From the NCBI GenBank assembly GCA_026004095.1, contig BPIL01000001.1, positions 1 through 64,000 of the forward strand: DNA of 64,000 nt, written 5' to 3'. The notes beneath the pieces are model-generated. The model saw nothing but the letters and a program-made list of their open reading frames with translations. It searched no databases and had not been told where the DNA came from. A program made the position numbers and the translations under genes. Positions 48,659 through 48,785 of the stretch are shown in pieces. The DNA comes from Meiothermus sp. (GTDB lineage: Bacteria; Deinococcota; Deinococci; Deinococcales; Thermaceae). Numbering within the stretch: the stretch's first letter is position 1; each line of letters begins with the position of its first letter.

Positions 48659-48763
48659 TTGGTTGGGGAGTAGCTGACCGCAAACGCGGGTGTCGGGGCC
48701 GTCAGTACAGGGCTAACAACCCTCGGTCAAGACAAGTCGAAAAACTTCAGCGAGACCACCACG
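48659..48763 (+). ncRNA. yybP-ykoY family (Mn2+) riboswitch
   Basis: GGGGAGTAGC ... GCCGTCAGTACAGGGCTAACAACCCTCGGTCAAGACA ... AGCGAGACC, matching the conserved blocks of the family in order and spacing. Confidence 0.85.
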
Positions 48764-48785
48764 GCAAAAACCCGTGGTGGTTTTT
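48756..48785 (+). terminator. intrinsic terminator forming the riboswitch expression platform
   Basis: CCACCACGG-caaaaac-CCGTGGTGG-TTTTT; 5' arm overlaps the aptamer P1 3' strand. Confidence 0.88.

What the first reader, a model, noticed from the sequence alone, without database searches (positions are those of the whole stretch)
48659..48785. Mn2+ (yybP-ykoY) riboswitch with an overlapping intrinsic terminator
Seen: the conserved blocks GGGGAGTAGC, GTCA...GGTCAAGACA and GCGAGACC occur in the order and spacing of the yybP-ykoY aptamer. The aptamer's 3' closing strand (CCACCA) is also the 5' arm of a strong terminator (CCACCACGG caaaaac CCGTGGTGG TTTTT). Established: this family senses Mn2+ and often works as an ON switch by stabilising P1. 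Inference: metal-bound P1 sequesters the terminator arm and turns on the downstream small gene.
Basis: partly seen in the sequence, partly recalled or inferred. Interest (0 to 1): 0.88.

Follow-up and report, generated by a model that had tools for sequence, protein, structure and literature searches.

The report
Manganese riboswitch upstream of orphan gene
In a Meiothermus genome, a well-known type of RNA switch that senses manganese sits directly upstream of a tiny protein gene of unknown function, so the switch is ordinary but the gene it appears to control is new.

Summary
The finding is real. The three conserved blocks and the overlapping terminator are at the stated coordinates, and none of 100 shuffled windows reproduces either. 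That cut-off is not a fair test: E. coli mntP, a validated Mn2+ riboswitch, scores 41.6, and validated alx is not listed at all. A covariance model built only from other Thermaceae elements (upstream of terC/YkoY or a Zn-peptidase gene) finds this site at 52.2 bits, E = 2.5e-12, and also finds E. coli mntP. Unconstrained folding gives the canonical four-way junction; the family covaries strongly; the metal-contact adenosine is present (A48704); the P1.1/terminator overlap recurs in all 20 loci examined. A second copy in the genome precedes terC. Most likely mechanism: a Mn2+-dependent transcriptional ON switch. The unusual part is the target, a conserved 61-aa orphan protein found only in a few Meiothermus. 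Mn2+ binding and switching are inferred, not shown. Verdict: new member of a known class.

The parts
46758..48617 (+). dxs (1-deoxy-D-xylulose-5-phosphate synthase), upstream neighbour, not part of the switch
   Evidence: Pfam PF13292, PF02779, PF02780
48646..48654 (+). probable extended -10 promoter element TGCTATCCT, placing the RNA start close to the aptamer's 5' end
   Evidence: TGCTANNCT lies at nearly the same distance upstream of GGTTGGGG in all 13 Meiothermus elements compared; no sigma-70 consensus match in the scan; start site inferred
48659..48761 (+). yybP-ykoY-type (Mn2+) riboswitch aptamer
   Evidence: model R1, built without this element, 52.2 bits E=2.5e-12; RF00080 10.4 bits, below cut-off; four-way junction in unconstrained MFE
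48660..48666 (+). P1.1 switch helix, 5' strand (one bulged U)
48667..48672 (+). L1 metal-binding loop, 5' side (GGAGUA), facing GAGA 48752-48755
   Evidence: invariant columns in alignment A2; same block in the R1 alignment to E. coli mntP
48673..48751 (+). P1.2 (48673-48677 with 48747-48751) enclosing P2 (48678-48681/48686-48689), P3.1 (48691-48694/48731-48734 and 48697-48701/48724-48728), P3.2 (48709-48712/48720-48723) and P4 (48735-48737/48744-48746)
   Evidence: MFE of 48659-48761; family covariation for P1.2, P2, P3.1 and P3.2
48702..48708 (+). L3 metal-binding loop UCAGUAC; A48704 corresponds to the Mn2+-contacting adenosine (A41 L. lactis, A48 X. oryzae)
   Evidence: invariant UCA.UAC; residue role from PMC6754395
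48756..48761 (+). P1.1 3' strand CCACCA, shared with the terminator 5' arm
48756..48785 (+). intrinsic terminator: 9-bp stem 48756-48764/48772-48780, loop CAAAAAC, U5 tract 48781-48785
   Evidence: stem -15.6 kcal/mol at 37 C; layout conserved in 20 loci
48814..48999 (+). 61-aa orphan gene, the probable regulated gene (predicted N-terminal helix 3-21 and C-terminal helix 52-60)
   Evidence: no Pfam/NCBIfam match; orthologue in G041 with excess third-position differences 15/9/29 and NG86 dN 0.19, dS 2.8; low-confidence model, pLDDT 65
49037..49660 (+). metallo-beta-lactamase-fold hydrolase, 37 bases after the small gene; may be read from the same transcript
   Evidence: PF00753; adjacent to dxs without the cassette in most congeners

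Best explanation
The site is a yybP-ykoY-class Mn2+ riboswitch working as a transcriptional ON switch. Transcription starts just upstream of the aptamer. At low Mn2+ the CCACCA segment pairs into the 9-bp terminator and RNA polymerase stops at the U tract. At high Mn2+ (with Mg2+) loops L1 and L3 dock, P1.1 closes and holds CCACCA, the terminator cannot form, and the 61-aa gene (perhaps also the hydrolase gene behind it) is transcribed. Shown here: aptamer sequence, predicted fold, homology, covariation, the overlapping terminator, and a second copy upstream of terC in the same genome. Inferred: ligand identity for this copy, direction of the response, the transcription start, and any role of the small protein in Mn2+ stress.
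For: Model R1, built from 13 other Thermaceae elements, hits 48659-48761 with E=2.5e-12 in the window and 1.1e-10 in the whole genome; the only other hit in the genome at E<=0.01 is upstream of terC. The relatives' terC belongs to NCBIfam TIGR03716 R_switched_YkoY. R1 also finds the E. coli mntP leader (E=8.6e-5) and, weakly, the alx leader (E=0.007). Family covariation: 91.9% of cells paired against 75.7% shuffled, 21 of 25 pairs with changes on both sides, 183 such cells against 49; sliding the partners abolishes it. The free MFE equals the canonical junction. The terminator/P1.1 overlap is conserved in 20 loci. At full length the terminator state is about 9-11 kcal/mol better than the aptamer state (-44.9 vs -35.7 at 48780 and -49.2 vs -38.5 at 48785), so OFF is the default. 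The same mechanism was demonstrated in L. lactis (PMC11087558).
Against: RF00080 score below Rfam's cut-off (10.4 vs 45). P4 is short (3-4 bp). The downstream gene has no known link to Mn2+. Some yybP variants may have changed ligand (PMC7266159). The covariation counts were made on an alignment fitted to the structure, so they lean towards it. Energies are mostly at 37 C and without metal, while the organism is a thermophile.
Confidence: 0.85

Rival explanations
1. A yybP-ykoY-class aptamer whose ligand has shifted to another divalent metal (for example Ca2+, Cd2+, Co2+ or Fe2+), controlling a gene outside Mn2+ homeostasis.
For: The target is an orphan, unlike the terC copy in the same genome; the authors of PMC7266159 suspect such variants exist.
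Against: L1 (GGGGAGUAGC) and L3 (UCAGUAC, with the Mn2+-contacting adenosine) match the terC-associated copies of the genus exactly or with a single change.
Confidence: 0.1
2. A former riboswitch now acting as a constitutive terminator or plain leader, with no metal response.
For: Diverged P3/P4; predicted terminator much more stable than the aptamer; patchy distribution.
Against: L1, L3, P1.1 and terminator are intact; the diverged G041 orthologue keeps the fold with compensating changes in P2 and P4; the downstream gene is under purifying selection.
Confidence: 0.04
3. The conserved blocks are a chance resemblance and the site is only a terminator of dxs.
For: No Rfam hit at the gathering cut-off.
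Against: E=2.5e-12 with an independent model; pattern absent from 100 shuffles; canonical fold without constraints.
Confidence: 0.01

Closest known systems
yybP-ykoY (Mn2+) riboswitch, Rfam RF00080; L. lactis member (PMC11087558)
   Same: L1 and L3 blocks, four-way junction, P1.1 3' strand doubling as the terminator 5' arm, position at the 5' end of an mRNA
   Different: below the Rfam cut-off; short P4; P3 contains a GG/AA internal loop; the target is not a transporter but a 61-aa orphan
terC/ykoY-associated copies in Meiothermus (e.g. G000:C12:81317-81416)
   Same: same aptamer core, same CCACCACG terminator layout, same promoter spacing
   Different: different P2, P3 and P4 sequences; precede a TerC-family membrane protein; shorter or interrupted U tract
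E. coli mntP and alx leaders
   Same: same aptamer core, found by model R1
   Different: mntP is described as a translational riboswitch (PMC11647493, abstract), without this terminator layout

Membership tests
yybP-ykoY Mn2+ riboswitch | conserved L1 block GGGGAGUAGC facing GNGAGACC | tested here: met
yybP-ykoY Mn2+ riboswitch | L3 loop with the invariant Mn2+-contacting adenosine | tested here: met
   UCAGUAC at 48702-48708, A48704; role of the residue from PMC6754395
yybP-ykoY Mn2+ riboswitch | four-way junction P1/P2/P3/P4 with L1 and L3 internal loops | tested here: met
   unconstrained MFE; covariation in the family
yybP-ykoY Mn2+ riboswitch | common descent with accepted members (terC/ykoY leaders, E. 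coli mntP) | tested here: met
   R1 built from terC and Thermus leaders hits the window and E. coli mntP
yybP-ykoY Mn2+ riboswitch | Rfam RF00080 gathering score of 45 bits (a detection cut-off, not a structural or functional feature) | tested here: not met
   10.4 bits; validated E. coli mntP also fails (41.6) and alx is not listed at E<=1; no genome of the order passes
yybP-ykoY Mn2+ riboswitch | lies upstream of a Mn2+-homeostasis gene (common but not required) | tested here: inconclusive
   this copy precedes an orphan gene; the second copy in the genome precedes terC
yybP-ykoY Mn2+ riboswitch | selective Mn2+ binding | not testable with these tools
   needs in-line probing or calorimetry
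Transcriptional ON riboswitch (anti-termination) | aptamer closing helix and terminator share a strand and exclude each other | tested here: met
   48756-48761 in both, conserved in 20 loci
Transcriptional ON riboswitch (anti-termination) | ligand raises readthrough | not testable with these tools
   needs single-round transcription

The most novel reading that the evidence does not exclude
The 61-aa protein is an unrecognised Mn2+-stress effector: a small helical, strongly basic, Tyr-rich protein switched on by excess Mn2+ alongside, but separately from, the TerC exporter. With its riboswitch it forms a cassette that is gained or lost between dxs and the hydrolase gene.
Probability: 0.4. Interest if true: 0.55.

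Novelty: new member of a known kind. Interest (0 to 1): 0.38.

Why it matters
It shows that a widespread metal riboswitch is missed by the standard Rfam cut-off across a whole bacterial order, and it ties an orphan small protein to manganese through its regulator, which makes that protein's function testable. The same family model also points to a Zn-peptidase (PF04298) as a riboswitch-linked gene in Thermus-like genomes.

Tried and rejected
RF00080 at the gathering cut-off and at E<=10 on 600 bases gave nothing, and nothing in the whole genome; only the short stretch gave 10.4 bits. Rejected as disproof, because proven E. coli members score below the cut-off too. A GAGACC motif upstream of the first terC copy was checked and lies in an upstream coding region, without the other blocks. 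The consensus promoter/terminator scan missed both the promoter and the terminator, probably because the terminator stem extends into the U tract. An alternative hairpin using the U tract (CAAAAACC/GGUUUUUG) appears in the aptamer-constrained fold but its arms are not kept in G041, so it was dropped as an anti-terminator. The structure prediction of the small protein is too uncertain (pLDDT 65, pTM 0.28) to search for folds. The GTDB scan for the small protein found only the G041 contig.

Full report
Observation. The composite pattern occurs once in the window and in none of 100 dinucleotide-preserving shuffles; the same holds for the terminator with its U tract.

Rfam. RF00080 does not reach its cut-off anywhere in the window, nor E<=10 in a 600-base stretch. 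On a 161-base stretch it scores 10.4 bits (cut-off 45), starting at the right place, 48663. The 98%-identical orthologue in G031 scores 12.9 bits. This looks like a sensitivity limit: in 112 genomes of the order none passes the cut-off although 36 have weaker matches, and in E. coli the experimentally established mntP leader scores 41.6 bits while the alx leader is not listed at E<=1. In the printed Rfam alignment of a relative, the part 3' of P3 is spread over a long variable region, which probably explains the low scores (inference).

Independent homology. I collected elements upstream of terC in the genus and from Thermus-like genomes, aligned 13 that exclude the window type, and built covariance model R1 with helices P1.1, P1.2, P2, P3.1 and P3.2. 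R1 finds 48659-48761 at 52.2 bits, E=2.5e-12; the next best in the window is 11 bits. In the whole genome it finds two sites at E<=0.01: this one (1.1e-10) and C12:81317-81416 (2.2e-25), directly upstream of a terC gene. That second site was itself one of the 13 training sequences; the window site was not. R1 also finds the E. coli mntP leader (22.6 bits, E=8.6e-5) and, weakly, the alx leader (15.8 bits, E=0.007) in 9.5 kb, which links the Thermaceae set to proven Mn2+ riboswitches.

Structure. Unconstrained folding of 48659-48761 gives P1.1, the L1 internal loop, P1.2, P2, P3.1, L3, P3.2 and P4. Across 45 distinct family sequences 91.9% of pair cells are standard pairs against 75.7% in shuffles; 21 of 25 pairs have changes on both sides; sliding the partners by one column drops pairing to 45-49%. 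That alignment was fitted to the structure, so the numbers lean towards it. A MAFFT alignment made without any structure shows, between the window and its G041 orthologue, a C-G to U-A change in P2 and a longer P4 with paired changes; in the terC copies of G000 and G031, a G to A change in L1/P1.2 faces a U, keeping the pair. The adenosine that contacts Mn2+ through N7 in the L. lactis (A41) and X. oryzae (A48) structures (PMC6754395) corresponds to A48704.

Expression platform. CCACCA (48756-48761) closes P1.1 and also starts the terminator. As the transcript lengthens, a fold with the aptamer closed is best or nearly best until about 48775; from 48778 on the terminator wins, by about 9-11 kcal/mol at 48780-48785. 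The overlap is conserved in all 20 loci examined, although stem and U tract vary. This is the arrangement in which Mn2+-stabilised P1.1 prevents termination in L. lactis (PMC11087558). A TGCTANNCT element lies at nearly constant distance upstream of the aptamer in all 13 Meiothermus elements compared, so the RNA probably starts at or just before P1.1.

Target. The gene behind the switch encodes 61 residues, MKKIFFKLLALLVGRLLARRFGYGRPYYPAHYDPHYRGGFFKPYKYKRKKSWRKKLLDWLD, with no Pfam or NCBIfam match. Two protein clusters in 5.8 billion match it, it is convincingly present in 3 of 51 family genomes (a fourth, Thermus-like match at E=0.002 is doubtful), and the GTDB scan gave one contig, an uncultured Meiothermus. 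It is a real gene: between window and G041 orthologue substitutions fall 15/9/29 on codon positions 1/2/3 and dN is below dS (NG86 0.19/2.8; LWL85 0.16/1.4; YN00 0.26/0.60; short alignment, rough). The model suggests an N-terminal and a C-terminal helix with an unstructured basic, Tyr-rich middle, at low confidence. The two His residues of the window protein are not kept in G041, so a His metal site is unlikely.

Genomic history. In most congeners the dxs stop lies within about 20 bases of the hydrolase start (G039, G043, G027, G032-G036 where aligned, G042); in G000 and G031 the switch and small gene occupy the roughly 420 bases between them; G041 has the switch and small gene after dxs but no close hydrolase orthologue. 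Since G041 keeps only the small gene behind the switch, that gene rather than the hydrolase is the conserved target. A dxs tree places G041 far from G000/G031 with cassette-free genomes between, and the Dxs C-terminal tail of G000/G031 (KTATRR) resembles G041, G029 and G040 more than the close relatives G039 and G043. Gain, loss and recombination cannot be separated here.

Conclusion. Shown: a genuine yybP-ykoY-class aptamer with an overlapping terminator in front of a conserved orphan gene. Inferred with good support: Mn2+-dependent anti-termination. Open: ligand preference of this copy and the function of the small protein. The class and mechanism are known; the target is new.

Noticed in passing
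L106-L125 (Thermus-like g4 genomes), e.g. L034:1507-1608: In 20 of 20 Thermus-like loci examined, the best R1 hit precedes a PF04298 neutral Zn-metallopeptidase (YugP-like) rather than a transporter; most of these genomes have a second copy, and the four looked at precede a TerC-like gene. The library search found no paper linking the two.
   Followed up: partly
L140:231-323 (G028): Another Meiothermus has a weaker R1 hit (24.9 bits) upstream of an unrelated 76-aa ORF without Pfam match: possibly a second orphan target.
   Followed up: no
L047:1341-1440, L048, L049, L050 (terC copies of G000, G043, G041, G031): The conserved GGGGAGUAGC reads GGGGAGUAAC in these terC-associated copies, with U on the other side of the pair, as in the E. 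coli alx leader.
   Followed up: partly
L049:2276-2470 (G041 terC copy): The P2 arm carries an insertion of roughly 95 bases within the aptamer.
   Followed up: no
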